Positions 226 through 63,418 of a stretch of DNA of 64,000 nucleotides are shown piece by piece. A program made the translations under genes and the position numbers. Below the pieces are notes generated by a model that saw nothing but the letters and a program-made list of their open reading frames with translations, did no database searches and had not been told where the DNA came from. Positions within the stretch are counted from its first letter, which is position 1, and each line of letters starts with the position of its first letter. Source of the DNA: Thermothelomyces thermophilus ATCC 42464 (Eukaryota > Ascomycota > Sordariomycetes > Sordariales > Chaetomiaceae); contig NC_016473.1 in assembly GCF_000226095.1 (NCBI RefSeq), forward strand, positions 5,270,001 to 5,334,000. Direction: 5' to 3'.

Positions 226-683
226 TGTCACGAGCCAACCATATACCGCGACCTAGTGGGGTGCAGCAGGCTAAACGAGCCACCAATCAAGAAGGGCACG
301 AAGCGAGGCTGACACAGGATCGCTAGGGAGCGCAGGCTACCACGGGCGAACAATTGCCAAAAAGGGAAAGATAGCAGAGGATAGCTAGCTACCAAAGGCA
401 ATCTAAGGATAGGATAGAAGGGGACCATAAGCGACCGACAGAAGTATATATATATATAAATAGTCACTTATTATAGTAGACTCTAGGAGTTCACTAGTAA
501 TAATAACCCTTATAATCACAGTACTTATACCGAGCATCGTTATTAACTACTATAAGAGATAACTCTAGTGTTATTATAAACCCTTTAGCTTTACCAAATC
601 CCTTAGATAACTTGCCTACTTGTCCCGCTTAATCTACCTTCGTCTAAACCCTTTTAGAAGAAGTCTAAGTTAGGTTCGTCATA
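226..683 (+). repeat. G1 5' LTR (subfamily A)
   Basis: 458 bp, beginning TGTCACGAGCCAACC and ending GGTTCGTCATA. It has the same length as the copy at 15001-15458. The first 240 bp or so are specific to this subfamily; the last 218 bp or so match the ends of the LTRs of G2, G3 and G4. Confidence 0.92.
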
Positions 684-4336: not shown

Positions 4337-4785
4337 TGTGACAAACCTAGCTCAGACTTCTTCTAAAAGGGTTCAGACGAAGGTAGATTGAGCGGGACAA
4401 GCGGGCAGGTCGTCTAAGGGATTCGGTGAAGCCAAAGGGTTCACAATAACACTAGAGTTGTCTCTCATAGTAATCAGCAATACTTGGTATAAGTACTGTG
4501 ATTGTGATTATTACCACTAATGAACTCTTAGAGTCTACCGAACGAGTGACTGGCTAGCTATATATATATACAATTTATCTGTCCTTCTTCTATAGTTATT
4601 ACTAGTACTATTTCTCCTTTTACTCCGTGATTCCGCGTTGTCGACGGTGACATGCTATTATCACTAGTGAAGACCTTAGTCTTGGCGGTGATAATCTTCC
4701 GATTAGTTCGTTAAGTGATTAGCTATCGGAATGTCCCGTGTCCTAGCTACAGCCTGCCAGGCCATCTATATGCTTACTTATGACA
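4337..4785 (-). repeat. G2 3' LTR (subfamily B)
   Basis: 449 bp. On the plus strand it begins TGTGACAAACC and ends TTATGACA; read on the element strand it begins TGTCATAAGTAAGC. The same length as the copy at 11492-11940. Confidence 0.92.
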
Positions 4786-4910: not shown

Positions 4911-5577
4911 ATGCCGATAGAGAAACGGAAGTCGTATTCTACGCGTTATCGTGCTTCCCTTGCTCAGAACATCGCTAAGAACGGTTTTATCGTAATGCCT
5001 TGTTCTTAGTGTATGTCGTAAAGCCTTATCTGTAAGATGATCACGCGTATAAAGCGTTATAAAGTCTATATCCGTTAAGGTTGTTCTTATAATGGCTCTA
5101 GCATCTTGCTTTCTTCCTATAAGCGTGTCTTTCTTTCTCTTCTTTTTTTTTTTTTTTTTAAGTGTAATTCCTAATATTCGTTCTAATAGATCACATTCTC
5201 TAGGAGCAGCGTCATATTAAGGATGCTAAACGTCGTACCGAACTTAAGCTAGATAAATCCTAATGCCGTCTAGAAGAAGCCTAGCGCGAGTTGTCCGAAA
5301 GGCTTATATAGCTCTAGCGTCTTCGTTAGTAGAAGGAGTTTTTAGTAGAGAAGGGTGCCGATATGGTGGCACGTAGTCTGTCGACCTTAGACGAGTTAGA
5401 GGAGGTTAAGTAGCAAGAGTGGCAAGAGGCGTCTACTATGCCCTTGTTAGAGATTAGTAATGCTACTGATGTTATTAATTAGAGCGCTATCTTTGGTTCT
5501 GTCCTAGGCTTTCCTTTGGTCGATCCGGGTTTTGCTAGTAGAACTATTCTAGTTTCTTAGGGTAATTTAGGTTCTTA
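4911..5577 (+). pseudogene. G2 antisense accessory ORF (Cys-rich module, intron, coiled coil)
   Basis: It runs opposite to G2 pol. Exon 1 begins ATG at 4911 (MPIEKRKSYSTRYRASLAQN, then PCSQC and LICKM). An intron of about 71 bp (5119-5189) contains an 18-T tract; its donor now reads ATAAGC, where G4 keeps GTAAGC. Exon 2 from 5190 encodes a Lys/Glu/Arg-rich coiled coil (RTELKLDKSQ, EFLVEKGADMVARSL, TLDELEEVK) and a tail ending near 5577. The tail overlaps the sense pol end (5454) by about 124 nt. Only a few stops occur, at CAG/TGG-type sites. The same layout is seen in G3 and G4. Function unknown; the paired Cys motifs suggest zinc or nucleic-acid binding, which is inference. Confidence 0.7.
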
Positions 5578-8500
5578 ACTAGTTTCTATAAGTTATCTTC
5601 TAGTCTAAAATCAAGCTATTTAACTAGGTACTATAGTTCTCTATTAATGATATATAAATCTAGAATTTCTTCGACGTCCTATTCTTCCTCTTCGTCCTCT
5701 GCTTCGATATATATAACGACCTTGGCGGTTTTCGGTGCCAGTTCGAGAAGTAAAATATGAAAAACATCTGTCTGTAGTTATATAGATAACGGTAATGATA
5801 GTCGATAGTTAGATGTCGAAATTCGTTCTTTGATAACAAAGGGTCTAACCTTCCTAAAGTCTAGCTTTGTGCTTAGTCGTTTGGTTCGTAAGTTCTATAT
5901 AGTTAGGTAGACTTTGTCTCCCCTCTCTAGGCAAGGTCCCTCGAGCCTATATTTGTCGTAGTGATTCTTTATTCTAATCTTGACAAACTCGAGTTCTTTT
6001 TTAAGCTTTTTATATAGTGTATATATTTATTCCGCTTTGACTGCTGCTCTTGGCACTATAACCTCTAGTCCTTGCCTTAGGTCTGCTTCGTACCTGTAGT
6101 TTGTAAAGAATGGTATAACTTTGGTCGTTTCTGTTAGTATTATATTATAAGCGAGTTGTACTATTAGTAATAGTATGACCTAGTTGTCTTGTTAGTAGTT
6201 AATGTAAGAACGGAGATACTATTTGATGACTTGGTTTAGTCGCTCCGTTTGTCCGTCGGTCTGCAGGTGATATGCCGTTAATAGTTTGCTATTAATGCCT
6301 AATTGTTACATTAACGCTTGCTAGAACTTCGATACAAACTTAGTATCTCTATCGGTGATCTATTCTTATAGCTAAGCGTATACTAATATAACTTGCCGGT
6401 AGATTACGTCTACTAACTGTTCTACTATCTAGGACTCTTTATAGGGGAAGAAGTATACCTATTTAGTCAGGCGATCTGCTATAGTGAGAATACTATCGTA
6501 GATCACTCCTATAGCTATATCCTTAGATTCTAGTAGTTTCGTAATAAAGTCTATCATAACCGAGCTCTATAGTTTGTCAGGTATTAGCAGTGGCTAAAGT
6601 AGCCTATACGGCTTGTATCGTGCCGTCTTGCTTTAATTACAAATGTCGTAGTTCCGTACGACTTCCTTAACTCTTGTCATTAACTATAGAAAGTCGTAGT
6701 GTTTCTTGACTTGCGTGACAGTCTTCGTAACTCCTTTATGTCCTCCGAGTTTCGACTTGTAGAGTTCTTAAATCATTCGTAGCTATTGATCTTTATTATA
6801 GATATACGCTTTGCCTCGGTACCAGAGTTTCCTATCTCTTTCTTCTACTTCGTTAGGTACTACTAGTCCGGGTGCCGCTTGATACTATGTCTCGTTAATC
6901 CTTTCTTCTCGAAAGATTACATAACATTCTAGGAACAAGTTAAGTGGATTATCTTCTATAGGTATCTACGTTTCGTAATATAGCGTCCTATCTATTCGTT
7001 CCTTGAATAATGGTAGTATTGTTTCCGTTTGTCCTTTTGTATGATCCGTTTGTTGGCTTAAGATATCTGCTTGTACGTTTTCTTTGCCCTTCTTATAGTA
7101 GATCTTAAAGTTAAATTCCACGAGGAATTCTACCTATCGTATTTGTCATCTATTAAGTTCCTTTATCGTCGTAAAGTATTACAAATTCTTATAATCTATA
7201 TATACCTATACTAGTTTAATCATACTACTAAGGTATAGTCACCATTCCTTAAAAGCTTTGACAATTACAAGTAGTTCCTTATTATAGATCGAATAATTAA
7301 GATATAGTCTGTCGAGCTTCTTTGAAAAGAAGGCTATAGGATGTAGCTTCCCTTGTCTGTCTCGTTATCCTAATTGTCCTCTAATGGCATAGTCTGAAGC
7401 GTCTGTTTCTACCTTAAATGGTTTCTTAGGATCTGGTAGTATTAGTACTAGATCTTCGGTAATGGCGTCGCGGATTTACGTAAATGCTTGCTCATGTTAT
7501 TCTTCCTATTGGAATTTAGCATTCTTCTAAGTAAGTTCGTATAAGGGTCGTACGATCGCTCCGAAGTTTCTAATAAACATCTGGTAGAAGTTTGTAAATC
7601 CGATAAAGCTTTATACTTCTATAACTAACGTTAGTTATAGCTAGTCCTTGATAGCTTTAACCTTTGAAGGTTCTATCTAGATTTATCCTAGGGATATTTC
7701 GTATCCTAAAAAGACTATCTTCCTAATATAGAATTCGCTTTTTTCCTTGTTAACCGATAGCTTATATATGTATAGCACGTCTAGTACTACTCTTACGTAC
7801 TTCCGGTGTTCGTCTATTATCTTGGAGAAGATAAGTATGTTGTCAAGATAATATACTATAAATTTGTCAAGAAAGGGTTAGATAGCTTGATTAATCAGAG
7901 CTTAGAACGTTACTAGCACGTTTATAAGTCCGAATGGCATGACAAGGTACTTATAGTAGCTATAAGGTATCCTAAAGGCTGTTTTCTACTTGTTGCCTTC
8001 TTTAATCCTTATATAGTTATAGGCTGATAGCAAGTCAAGACGCGTAAAATATTAGGCTTCTGCTAACTAATCTCGGAGCCGTAAGATTAGTAGTAACAGG
8101 TATCGGTTTTTTACGGTCTGTTCGTTAAGTTACTAATAGTCGACATATAACTATAGCTTTCTGTCCTTCTTAGGCATAAACAGGATTAGGTAGCCTGCTA
8201 GCGATGTTAACAGGCAGATATATCCTCTTCAAAGGTTCTCCTCTAAATATCGCTTAATTTCTTTATTTTATATTTAGCTTATGTAGTAAATCTTAAAGAA
8301 CTTCAATCGTGCTCCTTCCTTAAGTTTGATCTCGTAATCCTATAGGCCGTGTTTTGGTAGTCCTTCTAGATGTTTTGGTTCGAATGCTAGGTATCCTTCG
8401 TATTCCTTTGGTACTTCCCTAGTCTTGTCTCGTCTCTCGGTTCTCTGATAGTATACGAACTTAATTCTATCTATAGCGATACTAGCGATTTCTCCTATCT

Positions 8501-11491: not shown

Positions 11492-11940
11492 TATAACGAA
11501 CCTAGCTTAGACTTCTTCTAAAAGGGTTTAGACGAAGGTAGATTAAGCGGGACAAGCGGGCAGGTTGTCTAAGGGATTTGGTAAAGCTAAAGGGTTTATA
11601 ACAACACTAGAGTTATCTCTTATAGTAATTAGCAATACTTAGTATAAGTATTAAGATTGTGATTATTACTATTAGTAAACTCTTAGAGTCTACTAAACAA
11701 GTGACTGGCTAGCTATATATATATATAATTTGTCTGTCCTTCTTCTATAGTTATTACTAGTACTATTTCTTCTTTTACTTTATAATTCCGCGTTGTCGAT
11801 GGTGACATGCTATTATCACTAGTGAAGACCTTAGTCTTGGTGGTGATAATCTTCCGATTGGTTCGTCAAGTGATTGGCTGTCGGAATGTCCCGCGTCCTG
11901 GCTGTAGCCTGCCAGGCCGTCCATATGCTTACTCGTGACA
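11492..11940 (-). repeat. G2 5' LTR (subfamily B)
   Basis: 449 bp, ending CTCGTGACA on the plus strand directly before the ACAAT duplication. It is adjacent to gag of the minus-strand element. Confidence 0.92.
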
Positions 11941-11945: not shown

Positions 11946-14900
11946 ATACTTATCTTCTCTAAGACAATAGACGAACACCAGAAGTACGTAAAAGCAATGC
12001 TAGATATACTATATATATATAAACTATTAGTTAACAAGGAAAAGAGCAAATTCCATGTTAGGAAAACGGTGTTTTTAGGATATAAGATATCCCTAGGATA
12101 AATCCGGATAGAACCTTTAAAGGTTAAAGCTATTAAGAATTAGTTACAACCGACGTTAGTTATAGAAGTACGAAGCTTTATTAGATTTGTAAACTTCTAC
12201 TAGATATTCATTAGGAACTTTAGAGCGATCGTATAACCTTTATACGAACTCACTAGGAAGAATGCTAAATTCTAATAGAAAGAATAGTATGAGTAAGCAT
12301 TTATATAGATCTACGATACCATTACTAAAGATCTAGTACTAGTACTACTAGATCCTAAGAAGCCATTTAAGGTAGAAACGGACGCTTCAGACTACGCTAT
12401 CGGAGGATAATTAGGATAACGAGACGGATAAGGAAAGCTATATTCTATAGCCTTCTTTTTAAAGAAGCTTAATAGACTATATCTTAATTATCTAATCTAT
12501 AATAAGGAACTACTCACGATTGTCGAAGCTTTTAAGGAATGGCAACTATACCTTAGTAGCACGATTAAACTAGTACAAGTATATATAGATCATAAGAACT
12601 TGCGATACTTTATAACGACGAAAGAGCTTAATAGACGACAAATACGATAGGCAGAGTTCCTTACGGAATTTAACTTCGAAATCCGCTATAAGAAGGGCAA
12701 AGAGAACATACGAGCAGATATCTTAAGCCGACAAACGGATTATACAGAAGGACAAACAGAAACAATACTACTATTATTCAAGGAATAAATGGACGGAACG
12801 CTATATTACGAAATGTAGACACCCGTAGAAGATGATCCACTTGACTCGTTCCTAGAGTGTTATATAATCTTTCAAGAAGAAAGGATTAACGAGACATAGT
12901 ATTAAGTAGCACCCGGACTACTGGTACCTAACGGAGTAGAAGAAAGAGATAGGAAACTCTAGTATCGAGGCAAAGTATATATCTATAACGGGGATTAATA
13001 GCTATAAATGATTTGGGAACTCTATAAGTCGAAACTCGGAGGATATAAAGGAGTCACGAAGACTGTCATATAAGTTAGGAAATACTACGACTTTCTATAG
13101 TTAACGGTATAAGTTAAGAAAGTTATATAGAACTACGATATTTACAATCGAAGCAAAACGGCATAACATAAGCTATATAGACTACTTTAGCCATTGCTAA
13201 TAGCTAACAAACTATAGAGTTTAGTTATAATAGACTTTATTACAAAGCTGCTAAAATCTAAGGACATAGCTATAGGAGTAACCTATAATAGTATTCTTAC
13301 TATAGTAGATCGCCTAACTAAATAGGTATACTTCTTTCTCTATGAGGAGTCCTAGACAGCGGAACAGTTAGCAGACGTGATCTATTGGTAAGTTATATTA
13401 GTACATGCTTGGCCGTAAGAATAGATTACCGATAGAGACACCAAGTTCGTGTCAAAGTTCTGGTAAGCGTTAATATAACAATTAGGTATTAATAGCAAAC
13501 TATTAACGGTATATTACCTGCAGACTGACAGACAAATAGAGCGACTAAACCAAGTTATCGAGTAATATCTCCGTTCTTATGTTAACTACTAGCAAGATGA
13601 CTAGGTCATGCTATTACTAATAGTATAACTCGCTTACAATATAATGCTAATAGAAATGACTAAAGTTATACCGTTCTTCGCAAACTACAGATATGAAGTA
13701 GACCTTAGGTAAGGACTAGAGGTTATAGTACCGAGAGTAGTAGTCAAAGTAGAACAAATGTACGTACTATATAAAAAGCTTAAAAAGGAACTCGAGTTTG
13801 TTAAGACTAGAATAAAGAACTACTACAATAAATATAAGCTCGAGGGACCTCGCTTAGAGAGGGGAGACAAAGTCTACCTGATCGTATGAAACTTATGAAC
13901 CAAACGACTAAGTATAAAGCTAGACTTTAAGAAGGTCGGACCTTTTATTATCAAAGAACGAATTTCGACATCTAACTACCGACTATCGTTACTGTCATCT
14001 ATATAACTACAGACGGATGTTTTTTATATTTTACTTCTCGAACTAGTACTAAAGAACGCCAAGGTTACTATATATATCGAAGTAAAAGATAAAGAAGAAG
14101 AATAGGATGTCGAAGAGATTCTAGATTTACGTATTATTAATAGAGAACTATAGTACCTAGTTAAATGGCTTAATTTCAGACTAGAAGATAACTTATAGGA
14201 ACCTATTAAGAACCTAAATTACCTTAAGAAACTAAAGTAGTTCTACTAGTAGAATCCTAACTAGCTATAAAAACCGGCTCTAAAGCCTATTCCCTAATAG
14301 AAAAAGAGGGGAACCTACCAGAATTAGGACTAGGATCTAACCTAATCGACTCCTAATTAAGCACGTCAAAAGCACCTAACGCCTAAGCCTAACCTACAAG
14401 GGTCTACGTCTCCGATATCGGCAGAGGAGTATCTAGCTCTTCCTCTTCCTCTAGACGAGCTACGCCATGACGAAAAACTTCGGCACCATGATCGTATAGG
14501 GATTGCTATAAATGACGTAATCGACTTAAACGGCTTAACGTCTAAGCAAGTAATGCCTCGGTCTTAGTAATCTCCCTTGAAACCTTCTCCTACTCTGACA
14601 AATTCGAAAGGACTAAGATAGTTAGTAACCTAAGATTACGAAGGAAAATAACGAGAAACCTATAGGTATCTATAACGTTCGGACTACTATACTTCTTGCC
14701 TATATAAATATAGTTTTGACACTTATTTAAACCCTCTATTATTATATAACGCTTTTATAGCTTTGTATTCTAATAACGCTTACAAGGTATAGCAACTTTG
14801 TAACCCTCTTGCTTAATCTTAATCGTAATAGTATATCGTTCGTGTTTAAGATCACGACGATTCCTAGGAATATGATTAGCTATAGCAAAAGGAAGTTAGT

Positions 14901-15000: not shown

Positions 15001-15458
15001 TGTTACAAGCTAACTATATACCATGACCCGGTAAGGTGTAGCAGGCTAAACGAGCCACTAATCAAGAAGGGTACGAAGCGAGGCTAACACAGGATCGCTA
15101 GGGAGCGCGGGCTACCACGGGCAAACAATTACCAAAAAGGGAAAGATAGCAGAGGATAGCTAGCTACCGAAGGCAATCTAAGGACAGGATAGAAGGGGAC
15201 TATAAGCGACCGACAGAAGTATATATACATGTAAATAGTCACTTGTTATAGTAGACTCTGGGAGTTTACCAGTGATAGTAACCCTTACAATTATAGTACT
15301 TATACCGAGCATCGTTGTTAACTATTGTGAGAGACAACTCTAGTGTTATTGTGAACCCTTTGGCTTTACCGAATCCCTTAGACGACTTGCCCACTTGTCC
15401 CGCTCAATCTACCTTCGTCTGAACCCTTTTAGAAGAAGTCTGAGTTGGGTTTGTCATA
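15001..15458 (+). repeat. G1 3' LTR (subfamily A)
   Basis: 458 bp, beginning TGTTACAAGC and ending GGTTTGTCATA, directly after the polypurine tract AAAGAAGGGGCATCA. Differences from the 5' LTR are mostly C/T and G/A. Confidence 0.92.
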
Positions 15459-18182: not shown

Positions 18183-18636
18183 TATCACGGATAAGCACAT
18201 AGACGGCCCGGCAGGCTACAGCTAGGACGTAGGACATTCCGACAGCTAATCACTTGACGGACTAATCAGAAGATTATCACTGCCAAGACTAAGGTCTTCA
18301 CTAGTAATAATAACATATCACCGTCAACAACGCGGAATTATAGAGCGAAAGGAGGAATAGTACTAGTAATAACTATTAAAGAAGGACAGATAATTATATA
18401 TATATAGCTAGCCAGTCACTCGTTATAGTAGACTCTAGGAGTTCACTAGTAATAGCAACCTAACCTATAATTACAAATACTTATACTAAGCATTACTAAC
18501 TATTATAAGAGATAACTCTAATATTATTATAAACCCTCTAGCTTCACCGAATCCCTTAGACGACCTGTACGTTTGTCCCGCTTAATTCACCTCCGTCTAA
18601 ACCCTTTCAGAAGAAGTCTAAGTTAGGTTCGTCACA
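18183..18636 (+). repeat. G3 5' LTR (subfamily B)
   Basis: 454 bp, from TATCACGGATAAGC (the TG start lost to RIP) to GGTTCGTCACA. Confidence 0.92.
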
Positions 18637-18649
18637 CATTGCTATCACT

Positions 18650-21375: not shown

Positions 21376-21807
21376 TGTCACGATTCGACCGCATAAGGCG
21401 ACCCGACAAGGCACACGGAACCAATCAGGAACCGCAAGACCCAAGGACCAATTAGGAAGTGATCGCAGTGATCGCACTTCGATCAAGGCGAGCACCCGAA
21501 CAATGATCAAAGGATCGCAGCAGCGATCACATGATCGGAATCTAAGGGAACACTTAGGAATAAGGGAACCAGACAAGTATATTAGATAGCTAGTCACTCG
21601 TTATAGTGGACTCTAGGAGTTTACTAGTGGTAACAATCACAATCATAGTACTTATACCAAGCATTGCTGATTACTATAAGAGATAACTCTAGTGTTGTTA
21701 TAAACCCTTTAGCTTCACCGAATCCCTCAGACGACCTGCCTGCTTGTCCCGCTTAATCTACCTCCGTCTAGACCCTTTCAGAAGAAGTCTGAGTTAGGTT
21801 CGTCATA
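21376..21807 (+). repeat. G4 5' LTR (subfamily C)
   Basis: 432 bp, beginning TGTCACGATTCGACCGC and ending GTTCGTCATA. The first 216 bp or so are unlike LTRs A and B. Confidence 0.93.
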
Positions 21808-21814
21808 TGTTGTT

Positions 21815-24800
21815 ACTACTCCCTTTGTTTTGTTATGGTTCAGAACGGAGGTGACTTCGACCTCGATATCGACATAGCTACCAACGTCACGGCCGAACAG
21901 CTGCTTGCTTAGCTTGGTCAACTCTAGCAGTAGATCTAGGAGTTAGACTAGAGAGATAAGGCCGCTTAAGCTCGAATTAAGGAACTCGAGAACCGCGAAA
22001 AGTACTCGTAGAAGTTGGTTAACGAGGCCTATACTAAAATCGAGGCACTCGAGGGCGCTAAAGCGAAGCATATTAAGATCGAACTACCTGGCAAATATAG
22101 AGGAACCAAGGAGGATCTTGTAGGATTCTTGATAAATCTCCGATCCTACTTCCGGCTTAACGATGACAAGTTTCTAGACGAAAAAGCCAAGGTCCTTTAC
22201 GTAGCTACGAGACTAGAGGGTAAGGCACTTAGATAGTTCGAGCCGATATAGAATGACTATCTCATTAAGGAAGACGAAGATAACCAAGACGCGTTTACGT
22301 AGGCAGTCTTCTGATCTTACGACCGTTTTAAAGAAGAGCTTTAAAAGGTTTTTGGCGATAAGGACAAGAAGATTTATATGTAAGAAAGACTTACTAATCT
22401 CCGACAGACTAAGTTAGTAGCCTCTTACGCCGTACAGTTTAGGCAGGACATGCTTAAGTCTTAGCTTAATGACGAGGCGTTAATGCAATTGTTCTATAAC
22501 GGCTTAAAGGAAAAGGTCAAGGACGAGCTATATAAGTATAATCGGCCTAAGACCCTAGACAAATACATTATATAGGCTATTAGAATTAATAATCGACTCT
22601 ATATACGAGAGTAGCAGAAACGAGGTCAAATGAACGGAACTACGGTTAAGGCTAACGATAAGAAAAAGCGAGTATACGTTAGTACCTTATATAGGACGTA
22701 CCTTAGAGCTATAGATATAGATATAACGTAGAAGTAGGATTAGAAGAAGACAACCAAAGACAAGTCTAATATTACCTACTATAACTATAGAAAGAAAGGG
22801 CACTATAAGTGAGAATGTCATAGCCCAAAGAAAGAGTAGAAGATAGTCCCTAGAAAGGAAATTACGACTATTGACGAAACTACTAAGGACGTCATCGAAG
22901 TAGCGGCCACGAGCTACGAAGACAGGGGTAGTAATACAGATAGTCTCGGACATGACGACAATGGTAAAGACGAACAAGCACCGTACTCCGAACTAGTCAC
23001 TATAGACCTAGAGACAAGTCTTGCCAAATGGGACATGGCAAGAGAATATGCACCGCTAGCTTCGATTCTCCTAGTCTTGAGGCAGTGGGGTTTCACGGTC
23101 ACGTAGAGGCGGGATGGATCGTAGACAACCGATACCTAAGGAATCGAAAGACCCGGACCTAATATTCTATTCCTCTAGGAACAAATCGAATAGTACCGTA
23201 ACGAAGTTTTTTAGCTTAATATAGAACTGTGTAAACGGGACGGGCGCTTGATTCGACTTATCTAGTAGAGCAATAGAATGAGGGACAAAATGAGGGAACT
23301 CTAACGTATTATAGAAACCATCAAAGGAGAATAGCCTATAATATACGATAGGCTCGATAGCTACGCTAAGTATCTTGACAGCTAATAACTTAGTAATAAC
23401 GTACGGAACCTAGAATACCAGTTTATACGTACGAACCGTAGAAAAGATAAGCGTATATAGGAAAGCTACTAGAAGAAATACTCCTATGTCAGCACTAGAG
23501 TACCTATAGTCTACGTATAATGGGAAGGATTCGGGAAAGAATTCTAATACCTCCTAGGCAACGCTACGCGACTGTACCCTCGATACAAGGCACATGCGCA
23601 AGTGCCCTGGTTCCAGTGTATGGCATACGAATGCCGATACCACTTCTACGACAAATTCGAAAACAATCACTGGCCGACCTGACAAGGAAATGAGGACGGA
23701 AGCTTATGCCCTGTGAAATGGGTCTACGATATAGGAAACAGAGCGGCCGAATTGCTCTGGAAGATCGAAGCCCATAATTTAGAAAGCATTACGATAGTTC
23801 TAAGACAAGCCTAGCCTAGGTACTACGGAACCGGACGAGACATATAGGACTCGTACTAGAGCAATGATTGCCTCTATCACGCGGACGAAAAGAAATTGCG
23901 AATTCGGGAGCTTCAGACAAAGCTATAGCACGTATAACGGAAAGTAGAATAGACCTAATGGTAGGAAGCTGTAAGTATTTAATGGCTTACGGAAATAAGC
24001 ATAATCGATAAAGCTGCTATTAGCCGAACAACCGAAGAGGTTAGCACTGACCTAGGAAATGGGTTAGGGCCCTTCGAGGGGCCCGGAAACTATTAACGCC
24101 TGCGTAGCGGCGAGTGGTAGCGCAGTATAGGAGGAACTAGCGTAAGAGACTACTATACCGAGACCTCCTGGCAGAAATATGGGAAATCACCGTAATCTTT
24201 GGACGATAGCGGCAAGACAAGCGACTATAGATAACAGCATAGTAGAAACAGTACGAAATGCTTGCACTAGTGGATAATAGAGTAGAGATAAACCTAATTT
24301 CGCTGACACTTGTAAATTAGCTATAGATACCCTAGAGAATAAAGCAGAAGCATGGTATAGTCAAAGGGCCATTTCTAACGTAATAGGTATATAGGGAGAC
24401 CGAACCGATTGACATTACTATAGTAGGAAAGACTATAGTAGTCGTATTTAGCATCGTAGACATAGGCAATAATAAAGATATAATATTAGGGTTACTATAG
24501 TATAAAGACTATAACCCGGACATTAGCTAGAAGAATAGTGGCTACCTGCGACCCCAAACGGAGTTATATTTGATTAGCGAGATAGGGAGCGCGCAAGGAT
24601 CGCGAGCGGACGATGCTTAGGGGAAGGCATATCCCACAGATCTACCGCAAAAGACAGACAGTGGCAGGCAGACTACTACAGACTCTAGAAGAGGCGGCAT
24701 AACGACATCAATATCGCGACAGGAGGAACGAGCTAAATCGCCGATAGCTGTTCTCTCCGTTGACGAATACGGAACACTGTAATTAGAGTAATAGGTTGAG

Positions 24801-27800
24801 ACAGGAGAAATCGCTAGCATTGCTATAGACGGAACCAAGTTCGTATACTATTAGAAAACTAAGAGACGAGATAAGACTAGGGAAGTACTAAAGGAATACA
24901 AGGGACACCTAGCATTCGAACTAAAGTATCTAGAAGGATTACTAGAACACGGCCTATAGGATTACGAGATCAAGCTTAAAGAAAGAGCATGACTAAAGTT
25001 CTTTAAGATTTACTATACGAGCTAGACGTAGAATGAAGAACTTAAGCGATATTTGGAGGAGAACCTTTAAAGAGGATATATCTGCCTGTCGATATCGCTA
25101 GTAGGCTACCTGATCCTATTTATGCCTAAGAAAGATGGAAAGCTACGGTTATATGTCGACTATCGGCAACTTAACAAACAGACTGTAAAAAACTAATACC
25201 CGTTACCGCTAATCTTATAGCTCTGAGATCAGTTAGTAGGAGCCTAATATTTTACACGTCTTGACTTGCCATCGGCCTATAACTATATACAGATCAAAGA
25301 AGGCGACAAGTAGAAAACGGCCTTTAGGATACCCTATGGCCACTATAAGTACCTCGTTATGCCATTTAGACTTACAAACGCGCCAGCAACGTTCCAAGCC
25401 CTGATTAATCAAGCTATCTGACCCTTTCTTAACAAATTTATAGTATATTATCTTGACGATATACTTATCTTCTCTAAGATAATAGACAAACACCGGAAGC
25501 ACGTAAAAGTAGTGCTAGACACGCTACATATGTATAAGCTATTAGTTAACAAGGAAAAGAGCGAATTCCACGTCAGGAAAACGGTATTTCTAGGATACGA
25601 AATATCCCCAGGACAAATCCGGATAGAACCTTCAAAGGTTAAAGCCATCAAGAATTAGCTACGACTAACGTCAGTTACAGAAGTACGAAGCTTTATCGGA
25701 TTTGCGAACTTCTACCAAATGTTCATCAGGAACTTTAGAGCGATCGTATGACCTTTACACGAGCTTACCAAGAAGAATGCTAAGTTTCAATAGGAAGAGC
25801 AATACGAGCAAGCATTTATATAGATCCGTAACGCCATTACTAAAGATCTAGTATTAGTACTACTAGACCCTAAGAAGCCATTCGAGGTGGAAACGGACGC
25901 TTTAGACTACGCCATCGAAGGACAATTAGGATAACGAGACAAACAAAGGAAGCTACATCCTATAGCCTTCTTTTCAAAGAAGCTTAACGGACTATGTCTT
26001 AATTATCCGATTTACGACAAGGAACTACTTACAATTATTAAAGCTTTCAAGGAATAGCGACTATACCTTAGTGGTACGATTAAACCGGTACAAGTATATA
26101 CAGATCATAAGAATTTACGATACTTCACGACGACGAAGGAACTTAACGGATGACAAATACGATAGGTAGAATTCCTCGTGGAATTTAACTTTAAGATCCG
26201 CTATAAGAAGGGCAAAGAGAACGTACGAGCAGATATCTTAAGCCGACGAACGGATCACACGAAAGGACAAACAGGAACAATACTACCGTTATTTAAGGAA
26301 CGAACAGACGGAACGCTATATTACGAAATATAAACACCTATAGAAGACGATCTACTTAACTCGTTCCTCGAATGCTACGCAATCTTTCGAGAGGAAAAGA
26401 TTAACAAGGTATAGTATCAAGTAGCACCCAGACTAGTGGTACCTAACGGAGTGGAAGAAAGAGATAGGAAACTTTGGTACCGAGGTAAAGCGTATATCCA
26501 CGACAAAGATCAATAGCTGCGAATGATTCGAGAACTCCACGAATCAAAACTTGGAGGACATAAAGGAGTCACGAAGACTGTCGTACAAGTCAAGAGACAC
26601 TATGACTTTCTATAGTTAACGGCACGAGTTAAGGAAGTCATATGGAACTGCGATATCTGTAATCGAAGCAAAACGGTATGATATAAGCCGTATAGACTAC
26701 TTTAGCCACTGCTAATAGCTAACAAACTATAGAGTTTAGTTACAATAGACTTTATTACAAAGCTATTAGAATCTAAGGATATAGCTATAGGAGTGACCTA
26801 CGATAGTATTCTTACTATAGTAGATTGCCTAACTAAGTGGGTATACTTCTTTCCCTACAAGGAGTCCTAGACAGCGGAACAGTTGGCAGACGTGATCTAT
26901 CGGCAAGTTGCATCAGTGTATACTTGGCCGCAAGAATGGATCACCGACAGAGACACCAAGTTCGCGTCGAAGTTCTGGCAAGCGTTAATATAACGATTAG
27001 GCGTTAATAGCAAGCTGTCAACGGCATATCACCTACAGACTAATAGACAAACGGAGCGACTAAACCAAGTTATCGAGCAGTACCTCCGCTCTTATGTCAA
27101 CTACCAGTAAAACGACTAGGTCATGCTATTGCTAACAGTATAACTCGCCTACAATACGACGCCGACAGAAACGACTAAAGTTATACCGTTCTTCGCGAAC
27201 TACGGATATAAAGCAGACCTTAGGCAAGGACCAGAGGTCACAGTGCCGAGAGCAGTAGTCAAAGTAAAACAGATATATATACTATATAAGAAGCTTAAAA
27301 AGGAACTCGAGTTTATCAGAACTAGAATAAAGAACTACTACGACAAACATAGGCTTAAGGGACCTTGCCTAGAGAGGGGAAACAAAGTCTACCTAATCGT
27401 ACGAAACTTGCAAACCAAACAACCAAGCACAAAGCTAGACTTTAAAAAGGTCGGACCCTTTGTTATCAAAGAACGAATTTCGACATCTAACTACTAACTA
27501 TCGTTACTGTCATCTATATAACTATAGACAGATGTTTTTTATATTTCACTTCTCGAACCAGCACCAAAGAACGCCAAGGTTGCTACGCACATCGAAGCAG
27601 AGGACGAAGAGGAAGAATAGGACGTCAAAGAAATTCTAGATTCATATATTATTAATAGGGAACTATAGTACCTAGTCAAATAGCTTGATTTCGGACTAGA
27701 AGATAACTCATAGGAACTAGTCAAGAATTTAAACTGCCCTAAGAAACTAGAACAGTTCTACCGGCAGAACCCGGATTAACCAAAGGAAAACCTAGGATAG

Positions 27801-27845
27801 AACTAAAGACGGCGCCCTAGTCGACAGCATCGACGGCATTATTAA
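21815..27845 (+). pseudogene. G4 gag-pol remnant, best-preserved copy
   Basis: Gag from about 21815, with a stop-free stretch at 22015-22236 (KYRGTKEDLVGFLINLRSYF). Zinc knuckle near 22780-22830; long gag extension 23100-24240 (VQWEGFGKEF, GNRAAELLWKIEAHNLE); protease near 24262-24300, in the -1 frame relative to gag. RT 24910-25700 with the YYLDDILIFSK box at about 25446-25478 intact; RNase H near 25880-26260; integrase 26480-27200, then a stop-free stretch 27243-27497; chromodomain near 27600-27740. The frame ends at 27843-27845. Scattered stops remain, so no full-length polyprotein is encoded. Confidence 0.87.
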
Positions 27846-28376
27846 TCTATGACGAGGGTATAATAGGCGTCTCTTGCCGCTTAACCTCCTCTAACTCGTC
27901 TAAAGTCGACAGACTACGCGTCACTATATCGGCACCTTTCTCCACCAAAAATTCCTTCTACTGACGAAGACGCCAGAGCCATGTAAGCTTTTCGGATAAC
28001 TTACGCTAGGCCTCTTCCAGACAGCGTTAGGATTTATCTAGCTTAAGTTCAGCACGATGTTTAGCATCTTTAATACGACGCTACTCCTAAAGAATACGAT
28101 CTACTAGAACGAATATTAGGAATCATAGTAAAAAAAAAAAAAAAAAAAAAAAGAGGAGACAAGCTTACAGGAAGAAAGCGGGATGCCAGAGCCATCGTAA
28201 GAACGACCTCGACGAATACAGGCCTCGTAACGCTTTATACGCGCGATCATTTTACAGACGAGGCCTTGCGACGCGCACCAAGAGCAAGGTATAACAACAA
28301 AACCGTTCTTAGCGATGTTCTAAGCAAGGGAAGCACGGTAACGTGCAGAATACGACTTCCGTTTCTCTATCGGCAT
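27721..28376 (-). pseudogene. G4 antisense accessory ORF, best-preserved copy
   Basis: ATG at 28376 on the minus strand. Exon 1 reads with a single stop (Q-to-TAG type): MPIEKRKSYSARYRASLA, then PCSWCASQGLVCK and EACIRRGRSYDG, giving a C-X2-C-X6-C ... C pattern in which a later Cys appears changed to Tyr. The intron starts GTAAGC, contains a 22-T tract and ends TAG before exon 2. Exon 2 is a coiled coil (AELKLDKS, KEFLVEKGADIVTRSL, STLDELEEVK) with a tail to the stop at 27721-27723. It overlaps the sense pol end (27845) by 125 nt. Small Cys-rich plus coiled-coil proteins of this kind occur as uncharacterised proteins in fungi; a link to them is inference. Confidence 0.72.
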
Positions 28377-28467
28377 TTTGTCAGCATGGCGACTATGATG
28401 TAGAAATAGGGAGAATGCAATACTCACAAGCGAAGGGTTGTTAGCACTATTTGAAACGACCTAAGAG

Positions 28468-28503
28468 GGCTTTCGGGTCGAAAGCCTTGAAGGAGGGGCA
28501 TCG
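28468..28503 (+). repeat. Hairpin plus polypurine tract before G4 3' LTR
   Basis: GGCTTTCGGGTCGAAAGCC at 28468-28486 (perfect 8-bp arms), then TTGAAGGAGGGGCATCG up to the LTR. Confidence 0.8.
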
Positions 28504-28935
28504 TATCACAATTCGACCGCATAAGGCGACCTGACAAGGCACACGGAACCAATCAGGAACCGCAAGACCCAAGGACCAATCAGGAAGTGATCGCAGTGAT
28601 CGCACTTCGATCAAGGCGAGCACCCGAACAATAATCGAAGGATCGTAGCAGCGATCACACGATCGGAATCTAAGGGAACACTTAGAAATGAGGGAACCAG
28701 ACAAGTATATTAGATAGCTAGTCACTCGTTATAGTGGACTCTAGGAGTTCACCAGTAGTAACAATCACAATCACAGTACTTATACCAAGCATTGCTGATT
28801 ACTGTGAGAGACAACTCTAGTGTTATTATGAACCCTTTGGCTTCACCGAATCCCTCAGACAACCCGCCTGCTTGTCCCGCTCAATCCACCTCCGTCTAGA
28901 CCCTTTTAGAAGAAGTCTGAGTTAGGTTCGTCACA
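28504..28935 (+). repeat. G4 3' LTR (subfamily C)
   Basis: 432 bp, beginning TATCACAATTCGACC and ending GTTCGTCACA. It is close to the 5' copy; differences are mostly transitions. Confidence 0.93.
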
Positions 28936-28940
28936 TTACC
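28936..28940. repeat. G4 target-site duplication, right copy
   Basis: TTACC, paired with CTACC at 21371-21375. Confidence 0.85.
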
Positions 28941-31900: not shown

Positions 31901-32239
31901 CTATCATCTATATAACTACAGACAGATGTTTTTTATATTTTACTTCTCGAACTAATGCCAAAGAATGCTAAAATCGCTACAAACATCGAAGTAAAGGACA
32001 AAGAGGAAGAATAGGACGTCAAAGAAATTCTAGATTCACGTATTATCAACGGGGAACTATAGTATCTAGTCAAATAGCTTAATTTTAGACTAGAGGATAA
32101 CTTATAGGAACCAGTCAAGAATTTAAACTGCCCTAAGAAACTAGAACAGTTCTACCGGCAGAACCTAGATCGACTAAAGGAAAACCTAGGACAGAACCAA
32201 AGACAGCGCCCTAGTCGATAGTATCGATAGCATTATTAA
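28941..32239 (+). pseudogene. G3 pol remnant (RT, RNase H, integrase, chromodomain)
   Basis: Continues from 21375. The RT box YYLNDILIFSK is at about 29839-29871 (YLDD with Asp changed to Asn). RNase H follows (KPFKVETDASDYAI near 30270), then integrase (H2C2 region near 30960, catalytic core 31130-31570) and a chromodomain near 32010-32130 (EILDSRIINGELQYLVK). The sense frame ends at 32237-32239. One stretch (29753-30052) is free of stops, but the whole is not functional. Confidence 0.85.
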
Positions 32240-32769
32240 TCTATAATGAGGGCATAGTAGGCGCCTCTTACCGCTCTTACTACTTAACCTCCTCTAACTT
32301 ATCCAAGGTCAATAGACTACGTGCTACCATATCGGCACCTTTCTCTACTAAAAACTCCTTCTATTGACAAAGACGCCAGAGCTACGTAAGCTTTTCGGAC
32401 AACTTGCGCTAGGCTTCTTCCAGATAGCGTTAAGATTTATCTAGCTCAAGTTTGGTATAACGTTTAGTATCCTTAATATAATACTACTCCTAGAGAATAC
32501 AATCTACTAGAACGAACATTAGGAATTACATTTAAAAAAAAAAAAAGGGAGACGTACTTATAGGAAGAAAGCGGTATACTAGAGCTATCGTAAGAACAAC
32601 CTTGACAAATATAGGCCTTATAACGCTTTGTACACGTAATCATTTTACAGACAAGACCTTATAACACGCACCAAGAGTAAGGCATAACGACAAAACCGTT
32701 CTTAGCGATATTCTAAGCAAGGGAAGCATAGTAACGTACAGAATACGACTTCCGTTTCTCTACCGGCAT
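32115..32769 (-). pseudogene. G3 antisense accessory ORF
   Basis: Same architecture as in G2 and G4. ATG at 32769 on the minus strand (MPVEKRKSYS-type start), Cys-rich part, an intron holding a 13-T tract (plus-strand A run at 32533-32546), then a coiled coil with KEFLVEKGADMV, and a tail to a stop at 32115-32117. It overlaps the sense pol end (32239) by 125 nt. RIP stops and Cys losses are more numerous than in G4. Confidence 0.65.
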
Positions 32770-32896: not shown

Positions 32897-33350
32897 TGTC
32901 ACAGATGAGTATATAGACGGCCCGGCAGGCTGTAGCCAGGACGTAGGATATTCCGACAGCTAATCACTTGACGGACCAATCAGAAGATTATCACTGCCAA
33001 GACTAAGGTCTTCACTGGTGATAATAACATATCACCGTCAATAACGCGGAATCACGGAGCGAAAGGAGCAATAGTACTGGTGATAACTATTAAAGAAGGA
33101 CAGATAATTGTGTATATATAGCTAGCTAGTTACTTGTTATAGTAGACTCTGGGAGTTTACTAGTGATAGCAACCTAACCTACAATTACAAGTACTTATAC
33201 TAAGCATTACTAACTATTGTAGGAGATAACTCTAGTGTTGTTATAAACCCTCTGGCTTCACCGAATCCCTTAGACGACCTGTACGTTTGTCCCGCTTAAT
33301 TCACCTCCGTCTAAACCCTTTTAGAAGAAGTCTAAGTTAGGTTCGTCACA
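32897..33350 (+). repeat. G3 3' LTR (subfamily B)
   Basis: 454 bp, from TGTCACAGATGAG to GGTTCGTCACA. It has intact TGT/ACA termini and follows a GAAGGAAGGGCATCG tract. Confidence 0.93.
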
Positions 33351-33355
33351 CGAAT
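33351..33355. repeat. G3 target-site duplication, right copy
   Basis: CGAAT directly after the G3 3' LTR; the copia frame continues beyond it. Confidence 0.92.
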
Positions 33356-38175: not shown

Positions 38176-39127
38176 CTATATAAGACTGATTAATCTACCT
38201 ACATAATGGTCACCTCGGTCTTCCACACCCACTACGTTATCATTAAGTTCATCTCCTCCACGCTTTTCCTCCATGACGGCTATTGGCTCGGCATACTTCT
38301 TCCCCCGTACCTCGAGATATTTATCCAGAGCCGCCAGCACGTCTTTCGCCGTTGCAAACTCTCTTTTCCAGCATGCCAAAATCACGTCTCCAGCCGGCAA
38401 ATCCCTGACATCATCAGGAAACTTGTCCTGTTGGAAGTTAGGATATACCACCTTGTCCTCCCATTCTAGCCGGTCGTCAACTTTATCAAACCGCCCTGGT
38501 GTTAGCTTATACGGCCACCTTCCTGTATGGATTGTATAGAATATCGACCCCATGCCGAACAAGTCTAGTAGCACGCTCGACTGCCAGTTAAAGACAGGAC
38601 TATAGAACGGACCGTCAGGCAGGGACAGCCCGTCCAGGCCGAGCTCCTCGCATACCGAGCCACCAAAGTCGGCGAGCAGTAGGTCCCGTGCGCCCGGCGT
38701 TGTCTCATGGACTAGGATATTGCCCGGGCGGAGGTCTGAGTGTAGTACGCCGCGGCTGTGGATATAATCGAGGGCCTCGGCAAGTTGGCGGCACCAGAGC
38801 AGGCGCTGGTCTAGCGAGGTGGACGCGTGATGCTCGTCAAGGTACGTCTGGAGGTTGCCATGGCTAGCTTCGCCAAGAAGGATGCCATCACCTTGTAGGC
38901 CGAGATATCTAAGTAAGCTGTAAGACAATGGCCGATAAAATATAGGAGTAATCATCTTACCTGACAATCCTAGGGTGCTGGCCTAGTCTCTTAAGGATTT
39001 GTCGCTCCACAGAGAAGTTATTTGCAAACCGTCTGTCGAAGTATTCCTCTCCAAGCTGATGAGGTTTCTTTACCACAATACCCGGAGATACAGGTTCAAT
39101 GCTGCTTGTTGAGCCATAGATAGGCAT
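38176..39127 (-). CDS. Small protein-kinase-like protein, two exons
   Basis: Exon 1 runs 39127-38961 and exon 2 38908-38176, with a 52-bp intron (GTAAG...CTTAG); 299 residues. Kinase marks: VVKK (about residues 18-21, candidate beta-3 Lys), an alpha-C helix with VERQIL, catalytic loop HSDLRPGN (112-119, Asp114; the usual Lys is Arg), and DFGG (136-139). The C-lobe has LLDLFGMGSIFYTIHTGRWPY. A clear glycine loop is missing and the N-lobe is short. It resembles the kinase at 62558-63418 in size and layout. Such compact kinases are common and lineage-expanded in filamentous fungi. Probably a Ser/Thr kinase of unknown pathway. Confidence 0.82.
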
Positions 39128-62557: not shown

Positions 62558-63418
62558 CTACTCTAGCACTATGACTTGCTGTTCCCTTTCCAGCGCCTCG
62601 AGATCTTGAACCACTTCCTCGGCACTCTCATATTCCATCCGCCAGCACTTCATTGTGATAGCACTGCAGGCGTGCTTGTCTTCGGGAAAGGCCCCCTTTC
62701 GAAATCTGTCTTCCACCTTCTCATACCACCCTTCTTCTCCGTGAACGATATCGGGATATACGGCGTGCCCCATCATGATGAAGTAGAAAGTACACCCTAG
62801 CGCAAAGAGGTCGGTCTTGATGTCTGCGTCGAACGGGTCGTTTCGCGGAGCAGAGAATTTGCACGACTCAGCGCTCCAGCCGTCGACGAGCACTTTGCCG
62901 TCGGCCGATAAATGCCTCCCTTGGAAGTCGGAGAGCTTTATATGGAGGTGTTCGTCGAGAAGTAGATTCGTTGGCTGGATGTCGCAATGGAGGACTCGCC
63001 GGCTATGAATCCACGCGACAGCCTCCGCAGCCTCGCGGCACCAGGCCAGCCGCTGCTTGACGGAAGGAGGGGGTTTGCCGGATTCAAGCATATACTCGGC
63101 AATATTACCGTTAGTGGCGCGTTCTAGATAAAGCCCCGTGTCTGTAAAGCCTTTGCATGCTATAATGCGCTTATGCGGTCCGATGATTTCTAGGAGCTTC
63201 TTCTCTGCCTCAAGCCGGGTCATGTCACCGCCGGGGGCGAGTGGATATTTTAATACAGTCGAGTCGTCGACCTCGCCAATAAAGGCGCTGCCTCCCGAGG
63301 CTAGAACTCGCTTCACCTCCGGGGGACAGTAGTGTTGGTAAACAACAACAGATGGTGCTTTGTCGTTCGACATGATGAGCTGTCGAGAATGTCTAGGTAT
63401 TGTGTTGTTGATGGACAT
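62558..63418 (-). CDS. Small atypical protein-kinase-like protein
   Basis: Intronless, 286 residues, ATG at 63418 (a second Met at 63373 is also possible). A glycine-rich segment GGSAFIGEV (42-50), Lys57 in TVLKYP and an alpha-C helix LEAEKKLL are present. The catalytic loop is HCDIQPTN (144-151): Asp146 is kept, but the usual Lys is Gln148. The magnesium loop is DFQG (164-167) in place of DFG. The C-lobe has DIKTDLFALGCTFYFIMMGH. The lost Lys and Gly suggest weak or altered activity, though Asp and Lys57 remain. Related in layout to the kinase at 38176-39127. No partner is evident. Confidence 0.85.
   Translation of the reverse strand: MSINNTIPRHSRQLIMSNDKAPSVVVYQHYCPPEVKRVLASGGSAFIGEVDDSTVLKYPLAPGGDMTRLEAEKKLLEIIGPHKRIIACKGFTDTGLYLERATNGNIAEYMLESGKPPPSVKQRLAWCREAAEAVAWIHSRRVLHCDIQPTNLLLDEHLHIKLSDFQGRHLSADGKVLVDGWSAESCKFSAPRNDPFDADIKTDLFALGCTFYFIMMGHAVYPDIVHGEEGWYEKVEDRFRKGAFPEDKHACSAITMKCWRMEYESAEEVVQDLEALEREQQVIVLE

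What the first reader, a model, noticed from the sequence alone, without database searches (positions are those of the whole stretch)
4911..5577. Antisense accessory ORF conserved at the 3' end of three chromoviruses
G2, G3 and G4 each carry, opposite to pol, an ORF with the same build: MP(I/V)EKRKSYS start, a Cys-rich module (C-X2-C ... C), a short intron with a poly-T tract, and a coiled coil with VEKGAD. In each copy it overlaps the sense pol end by 124-125 nt (4911-5577, 32115-32769, 27721-28376). It stays readable although all surrounding genes are RIP-damaged. Ty3/gypsy elements do not normally carry this gene. It could be a regulator, a nucleic-acid binding partner, or a counter to host silencing.
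Basis: partly seen in the sequence, partly recalled or inferred. Interest (0 to 1): 0.85.

Follow-up and report, generated by a model that had tools for sequence, protein, structure and literature searches.

The report
Swappable antisense regulator gene of retrotransposons
Virus-like jumping elements in a fungus carry, on their opposite strand, a real gene for a protein that may bind DNA, and this gene comes in several very different versions, each usually paired with its own promoter region, although the neighbouring pol gene is, apart from mutation damage, almost the same.

Summary
The antisense ORFs are real at the stated places (G2 4911-5578, G3 32115-32769, G4 27721-28376), with the claimed build; the overlap with pol is 125 nt in an undamaged copy. 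They are not readable: 9-12 stops per 196 codons, as RIP-damaged as pol. The genome (Thermothelomyces thermophilus) has 18 copies of the gene without stops at separate sites, and the frame was under purifying selection before RIP. Of 74 related proteins 42 show CX2CX6CX8CX2CX6C, before a coiled coil; the nearest known domain, below threshold, is the Gal4-type zinc cluster. New: four gene types (A against B, C, D: 23-42% identical) sit beside almost the same pol (0-2 transversions per 947 nt), and gene type goes with U3 type, with one exception (G4). Best reading: an element-encoded DNA-binding regulator of its own LTR, exchanged with the U3 as a 3' module, in logic like HTLV-1 HBZ or a phage immunity region. 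No transcript or binding was observed. The position is known from brtn of Boty-like elements; the zinc-cluster reading and paired modules did not appear in ten literature searches.

The parts
4911..5118 (+). G2 antisense gene, exon 1 (Cys module), type A, with stops
5119..5186 (+). G2 antisense gene, 68-nt intron with poly-T
   Evidence: by alignment to an undamaged copy
5187..5578 (+). G2 antisense gene, exon 2 (coiled coil, tail; about 125 nt overlap the end of pol, by analogy with the undamaged copy)
32562..32769 (-). G3 antisense gene, exon 1, type A, with stops
32507..32561 (-). G3 antisense gene, 55-nt intron
32115..32506 (-). G3 antisense gene, exon 2
28169..28376 (-). G4 antisense gene, exon 1, type A, with stops
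28104..28168 (-). G4 antisense gene, 65-nt intron
27721..28103 (-). G4 antisense gene, exon 2
14206..14883 (-).
   Evidence: HMM hit 14335-14877 E 2.8e-10; ends counted by me
15001..15458 (+). G1 3' LTR, U3 type c (about 15001-15218)
226..683 (+). G1 5' LTR
4341..4785 (-). G2 3' LTR, U3 type a; G2 is inserted in G1
11496..11940 (-). G2 5' LTR
32899..33351 (+). G3 3' LTR, U3 type a
18185..18637 (+). G3 5' LTR
28506..28936 (+). G4 3' LTR, U3 type b (the one exception to the A-a pairing); G4 is inserted in G3
21378..21808 (+). G4 5' LTR, 94.2% identical to its 3' LTR

Best explanation
The feature is an accessory gene of chromodomain Ty3-type retrotransposons, coded on the strand opposite to gag-pol between pol and the 3' LTR. 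It codes for a protein of about 200 aa: an N-terminal helix, a six-cysteine zinc-cluster-like module, a long coiled coil and a tail with a conserved DW. Shown by computation: the gene has a conserved frame and splice signals, was under purifying selection before RIP, is free of stops in 18 near-identical copies, and exists in at least four very different types beside almost the same pol, gene type going with U3 type. Inferred: the protein dimerises through the coiled coil and binds DNA in the nucleus like a Gal4-type protein; it is transcribed from an antisense promoter in or next to the 3' LTR, whose inner edge lies about 130 nt from its ATG; and it sets transcription from its own LTR, most likely as a repressor or copy-number brake. 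Gene and U3 would travel together because one template switch near the end of pol during reverse transcription swaps both.
For: Purifying selection in type A (58 copies, exons outside the pol overlap): non-RIP transitions fall 19 of 23 on third codon positions (synonymous:nonsynonymous 19:4 against 69:134 possible, p 1.4e-5); transversions 7 of 11 on third positions (6:5 against 179:753, p 0.010); transversion variants 13 per 66 intron sites against 11 per 466 exon sites; 16 of 17 exon indels are +9 nt (perhaps one inherited event) while intron indels have any length. 18 stop-free copies, 99.8-100% identical, intron 66-80 nt, no pair of flanks over 60% alike. Exact CX2CX6CX8CX2CX6C in 42 of 74 family proteins; Zn_clus is the commonest Pfam match, 18 of 45 members scanned, next family 7. 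hhalign to 12 host Zn2Cys6 domains scores 23.58; 0 of 40 permutations with cysteine columns held fixed reach it, the best being 21.92. AlphaFold model: short helices 34-38 and 53-58 at the two CX2C pairs and one helix 69-151, pLDDT 83.9; first Foldseek match Pho7, and among VIA rows Put3 and Hap1 (Zn2Cys6 factors, label recalled), all weak. Type exchange: pol-piece transversions against an undamaged A copy 0/947 (B), 1/947 (D), 0 in five and 1 in one of six C loci over about 470 nt, while antisense genes of different type differ by 31-37 transversions per 100 nt. Pairing: A with U3-a in 57 of 58 distinct loci, B with U3-c in 9 of 9; of 40 U3-c hits 20 lie beside a listed B gene and none beside A; a type C gene in 6 of 6 loci fetched beside U3-b. 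In the tree A joins Canariomyces (100/91), D joins Corynascus and Staphylotrichum (100/99).
Confidence: 0.45

Rival explanations
1. The protein binds nucleic acid but serves another step of the life cycle: nuclear import or targeting of the pre-integration complex, or packaging, much as proposed for plant antisense ORFs. Pairing with U3 is a hitch-hiking effect of template switching.
For: A six-Cys module plus coiled coil fits any nuclear nucleic-acid binder; nuclear placement is reported for plant GENE23 (section read); the paired modules are neighbours at the 3' end of the element.
Against: It does not by itself explain why gene and U3 are the two parts that differ while the pol end, a 79-nt strip between them and R-U5 are shared.
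Confidence: 0.25
2. The active product is the antisense RNA (dsRNA, quelling or transcriptional interference), and the protein is secondary.
For: Antisense RNA roles are discussed for such ORFs (PMC7264820, passages).
Against: Selection acts on codons: third-position bias, in-frame exon indels; protein family conserved over several genera.
Confidence: 0.1
3. A captured host zinc-cluster gene that acts on host genes, for example against silencing or RIP.
For: Zn2Cys6 domains are common in the host: 88 matches in this genome.
Against: The window copies are RIPed like pol. No hit was named as an ordinary host regulator, but their genomic setting could not be seen.
Confidence: 0.1
4. The Cys module is not Gal4-like but of the DUF3716 kind or an unnamed fungal knuckle, perhaps protein-binding.
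For: The type B protein matches DUF3716 weakly (E 0.032, 14.6 bits against 22).
Against: Family profile against host DUF3716: 8%, score 19.4, against 43%, 23.6 for Zn_clus; only 5 DUF3716 sequences were available, so the comparison is uneven.
Confidence: 0.2

Closest known systems
brtn, antisense gene of Boty-like Ty3 retrotransposons in Botrytis cinerea (Zhao et al. 2011, Virology 417:248; not seen itself, only cited or mentioned in passages of PMC8365987, PMC7264820, PMC4227169, PMC5987419)
   Same: Antisense, between pol and 3' LTR of a chromodomain Ty3 element of an ascomycete.
Plant antisense ORFs (aORF-3R: Grande GENE23, RIRE2, Retand, PvRetro13; PMC7264820, passages and sections 5 and 7)
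   Same: Same place and orientation, unknown function, some nuclear.
   Different: No sequence relation tested; the sections read mention other domains (SMC, transposase 28), no zinc cluster and no allelic exchange.
crapaud LTR retrotransposon of Podospora anserina (PMC10787394; abstract, passages, sections 12 and 13)
   Same: Subfamilies that differ in U3 while the internal region is largely shared; chromodomain; RIP; an ascomycete of the same order (recalled).
   Different: The figure legend gives two ORFs and the word antisense does not occur in the text; the cause of U3 diversity is left open. Whether crapaud is the same element family was not tested.
HTLV-1 HBZ and antisense proteins of related viruses (PMC10186651, passages)
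   Same: Antisense gene at the 3' LTR; HBZ is a bZIP factor, and antisense proteins of HTLV-3 and 4 suppress 5' LTR transcription.
   Different: No homology claimed; animal retroviruses; exchange with U3 not known to me.
Gal4-type Zn2Cys6 factors (Pho7, Put3, Hap1; PF00172)
   Same: Six cysteines in the order CX2C..C..CX2C..C, then a coiled coil.
   Different: Below Pfam threshold; spacing of types B and C departs; short proteins.
Lambdoid phage immunity regions (recalled, no call)
   Same: DNA-binding regulator gene and its sites exchanged as a block between otherwise alike elements.
   Different: Analogy only.

Membership tests
brtn-type antisense gene | antisense ORF between pol and 3' LTR of a chromodomain Ty3-type element | tested here: met
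brtn-type antisense gene | sequence homology to BRTN | not testable with these tools
   no BRTN sequence held; no hit named Botrytis among 73, candidates capped at 7998
Zn2Cys6 (PF00172) | six-cysteine spacing CX2CX6CX5-12CX2CX6-8C (range recalled) | tested here: met
   42 of 74 family proteins and type A; type B (CX2CX8CX8CX2CX6C) and C depart
Zn2Cys6 (PF00172) | Pfam gathering score | tested here: not met
   18.1 bits against 21 for P0007; best of 45 members E 0.001. Not filed as a member; the claim is 'works like'.
Zn2Cys6 (PF00172) | zinc-cluster fold | tested here: inconclusive
Zn2Cys6 (PF00172) | DNA binding | not testable with these tools
   needs bench work
DUF3716 (PF12511) | Pfam gathering score | tested here: not met
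   14.6 bits against 22 for type B; no match listed for type A
chromovirus (chromodomain Ty3 element) | chromodomain at the end of pol | tested here: met
   PF00385 E 3.1e-14 in an undamaged type A copy
chromovirus (chromodomain Ty3 element) | RT phylogeny | not tested
   no call; pol was compared only in pieces
HBZ-like antisense regulator | represses sense transcription from the 5' LTR | not testable with these tools
   no expression data held
crapaud | sequence homology | not tested
   no Podospora sequence was available to me

The most novel reading that the evidence does not exclude
Chromoviruses of this fungus form 'immunity groups' as lambdoid phages do: an antisense-coded zinc-cluster protein recognises the U3 of its own group and limits its transcription, so an element escapes the brakes of resident copies by acquiring another gene-plus-U3 module by template switching. 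This would explain why antisense gene and U3 diverge as a pair while pol stays the same, why types are shared between genera, and the unexplained U3 subfamilies of crapaud in Podospora.
Probability: 0.25. Interest if true: 0.92.

Novelty: new variant of a known kind. Interest (0 to 1): 0.72.

Why it matters
Antisense genes of LTR retrotransposons have been described for years without a known function (PMC7264820, sections 5 and 7). Here one has a probable molecular class (a zinc-cluster-like module with a coiled coil), evidence of selection on its codons, and natural alleles beside an almost constant pol, each usually with its own promoter region. That makes function testable: each type predicts a binding site in its own U3 and no effect on the others. 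It also offers an answer to the open question why U3 regions of the fungal element crapaud split into subfamilies while the inside stays largely shared.

Tried and rejected
Readable ORF in RIPed elements: rejected by stop and RIP counts. Counter-RIP role: no support. CGG/CCG pairs within 16 nt in leader plus LTR of one intact copy: no enrichment (inverted 1 against shuffle mean 0.95, everted 1 against 0.94, direct CGG 1 against 1.21). Selection on the antisense frame inside the pol overlap: not seen (6:7 against 26:33); by pol frame the 13 variants fall 1, 6, 6 on positions 1, 2, 3, uninformative. Solved-structure sequence searches gave mostly coiled-coil chains and no Zn2Cys6 chain; one match over the Cys region was dystrobrevin at E 4.4. 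Pfam on three damaged window pieces: nothing. For U3-b, 38 of 40 hits had neither an A nor a B gene listed beside them, and one of the two A cases lies at an odd distance; six loci were then fetched and all six had a third type. U3-a: 30 of 40 hits, and U3-c: 20 of 40, had no listed gene beside them; half of all LTRs are 5' LTRs, and the gene lists were capped. The type B codon-position count (20 of 30 on position 3) is weaker than it looks, since its yardstick copy is itself lightly RIPed and the intron is included. Between types, third-position excess of transversions is clear for A-D and A-C (p 0.0001, 0.008), marginal for A-B (0.033), not significant for B-C, B-D and C-D. The intron transversion count may be raised by alignment in the poly-T tract. 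BRTN homology could not be tested. Literature: ten searches listed no paper whose title or abstract start gave a zinc-cluster reading or a gene-U3 pairing; only six papers were opened.

Full report
Setting. The window is G000:C2:5270001-5334000 of a 38,744,216-base, 7-contig genome. Family proteins from Thermothelomyces thermophilus ATCC 42464 are listed with longest contigs equal in length to contigs of G000, for example 5,454,242, so I take the genome to be that strain (Sordariales, Chaetomiaceae). Bases 226-33351 hold two nested pairs of LTR elements: G2 (minus strand, LTRs 4341-4785 and 11496-11940) sits in G1 (LTRs 226-683 and 15001-15458), and G4 (LTRs 21378-21808 and 28506-28936) sits in G3 (LTRs 18185-18637 and 32899-33351).

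Observation. The three ORFs exist and share start, cysteine module, poly-T intron and coiled coil. In an undamaged copy elsewhere: exon 1 208 nt, intron 66 nt (GTAAGC..TTCTAG), exon 2 383 nt, 196 aa, 125 nt overlap with pol. From ATG to LTR edge are 126-130 nt in the window copies (coordinates). The claim of readability fails: 12, 12 and 9 stops in 196 codons, CpA/TpG damage 60%, 65%, 51% against 47-68% in three pol pieces. G2 keeps 3, G3 2 and G4 4 of six cysteines, the others Tyr, as RIP on TGY codons predicts. Over 58 copies, transitions outnumber transversions 3295 to 131.

It is a gene. All 61 loci examined align over the gene (58 distinct: 38 from two searches, 20 chosen by me partly for few stops, 3 window copies; 3 repeats). 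18 have no stop and are 99.8-100% identical to the yardstick, the other 40 distinct copies have 3-13 stops. The choice favours undamaged copies, so these are not genome-wide proportions; the tblastn list alone was capped at 150 of 966 candidates. The 18 have unlike flanks and introns of 66 to 80 nt, in multiples of three or not. Differences that RIP does not make lie mostly on synonymous third positions (19 of 23 transitions; 7 of 11 transversions), though in exon 2 alone the 5 transversions are all nonsynonymous; 16 of 17 exon indels are +9 nt, perhaps one inherited event, and introns vary freely. The donor is GT in 28 and AT in 30 of 58 copies, the latter being the expected RIP product; the acceptor AG in 54 of 58.

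Four types. G1 holds a relative at E 2.8e-10. Its type (B) has at least 150 copies (cap; 269 candidates), each of the 150 with stops; least damaged copies (L073, L076, L077) show six cysteines with spacing CX2CX8CX8CX2CX6C, and comparison of one with the family profile gives 99.8%, E 1.4e-28. Beside U3-b lies a third type (C) in 6 of 6 loci fetched (E 5.7e-10 to 8.1e-5); by eye, four of its six expected cysteine places show Cys in some copy and two only Tyr. A fourth (D) lies in the element after a type A element on C2. Local identity A-B 28%, A-C 23%, A-D 42%.

Same pol, other gene. A 947-nt piece near the end of pol differs from an undamaged A copy by 0 (B, G1), 1 (D), 0 (G4), 2 (G2) and 2 (G3) transversions; C loci 0 in five and 1 in one over about 470 nt; five B loci held no pol piece. 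Transitions, 11-19%, I read as RIP. Antisense genes of different type differ by 31-37 transversions per 100 nt. Similarity to A stops 24-73 nt before the pol stop, returns for a strip of about 79 nt across leader and LTR edge, is lost again in U3 (44-55% identity between U3 types) and returns in R-U5 (C loci were cut before R-U5). G4 has gene A with U3-b.

Pairing. Of 78 rows (4 are repeats of a locus), A with U3-a 60 rows (57 distinct), B with U3-c 9, A with U3-b 2 rows (one locus, G4), C 6 and D 1 unassigned: the C pieces end at the U3-b by which they were picked, and the U3 of D is unlike a, b and c. By coordinates 20 of 40 U3-c hits lie beside a B gene and none beside A; 10 of 40 U3-a hits beside A and none beside B; 2 of 40 U3-b hits beside A, one at an odd distance (all lists capped). 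Effective sample: four founders and one recombinant, so linkage alone could explain it.

Age. In the tree A joins Canariomyces (100/91) and, less surely, Chaetomium (96/51); D joins Corynascus and Staphylotrichum (100/99); Canariomyces has a second, distant protein; B and C are long branches of unsure place. The types are therefore older than these genera, or have moved between them, while the pol piece in this genome is uniform.

Mechanism. Shown by computation: coding, splice signals, selection, type exchange, pairing. Inferred: zinc binding, dimer, DNA binding, antisense promoter near the 3' LTR, control of the own LTR. Exchange by template switching is also proposed for crapaud LTRs (passage).

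Known or new. Place and orientation are known from brtn and plant elements. U3 diversity on a shared inside is known from crapaud, whose figure legend gives two ORFs. Neither the zinc-cluster reading nor the gene-U3 pairing showed in ten searches of open-licence papers (listed under Tried and rejected); subscription papers, Zhao 2011 among them, were not seen.

Noticed in passing
window 226-33351: Two nested pairs of LTR elements, G2 in G1 and G4 in G3, all strongly RIPed.
   Followed up: yes
window 21378-28936: G4 looks like a natural recombinant: type A antisense gene with the U3 found beside type C genes elsewhere.
   Followed up: partly
L009-L017, L051-L059: 18 nearly identical copies of the antisense gene and 3' region without RIP stops, at separate sites, point to recent activity in a genome with heavy RIP.
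   Followed up: partly
L072 477-1123 (minus): A fourth antisense-gene type (D) in an element following a type A element on contig C2, with a U3 unlike the other three.
   Followed up: partly
P0002, P0003, P0060, P0068: Annotated MYCTH gene models of this family are short (92-121 aa), and P0002 and P0003 depart from the exon junction read here, so the gene is poorly represented in protein databases.
   Followed up: no
window 38176-38967 and 62558-63418 (minus): Two host ORFs with alike protein-kinase-type motifs (HSRGVLHSDLRPGNILV, HSRRVLHCDIQPTNLLL); the kinase label is recalled.
   Followed up: no
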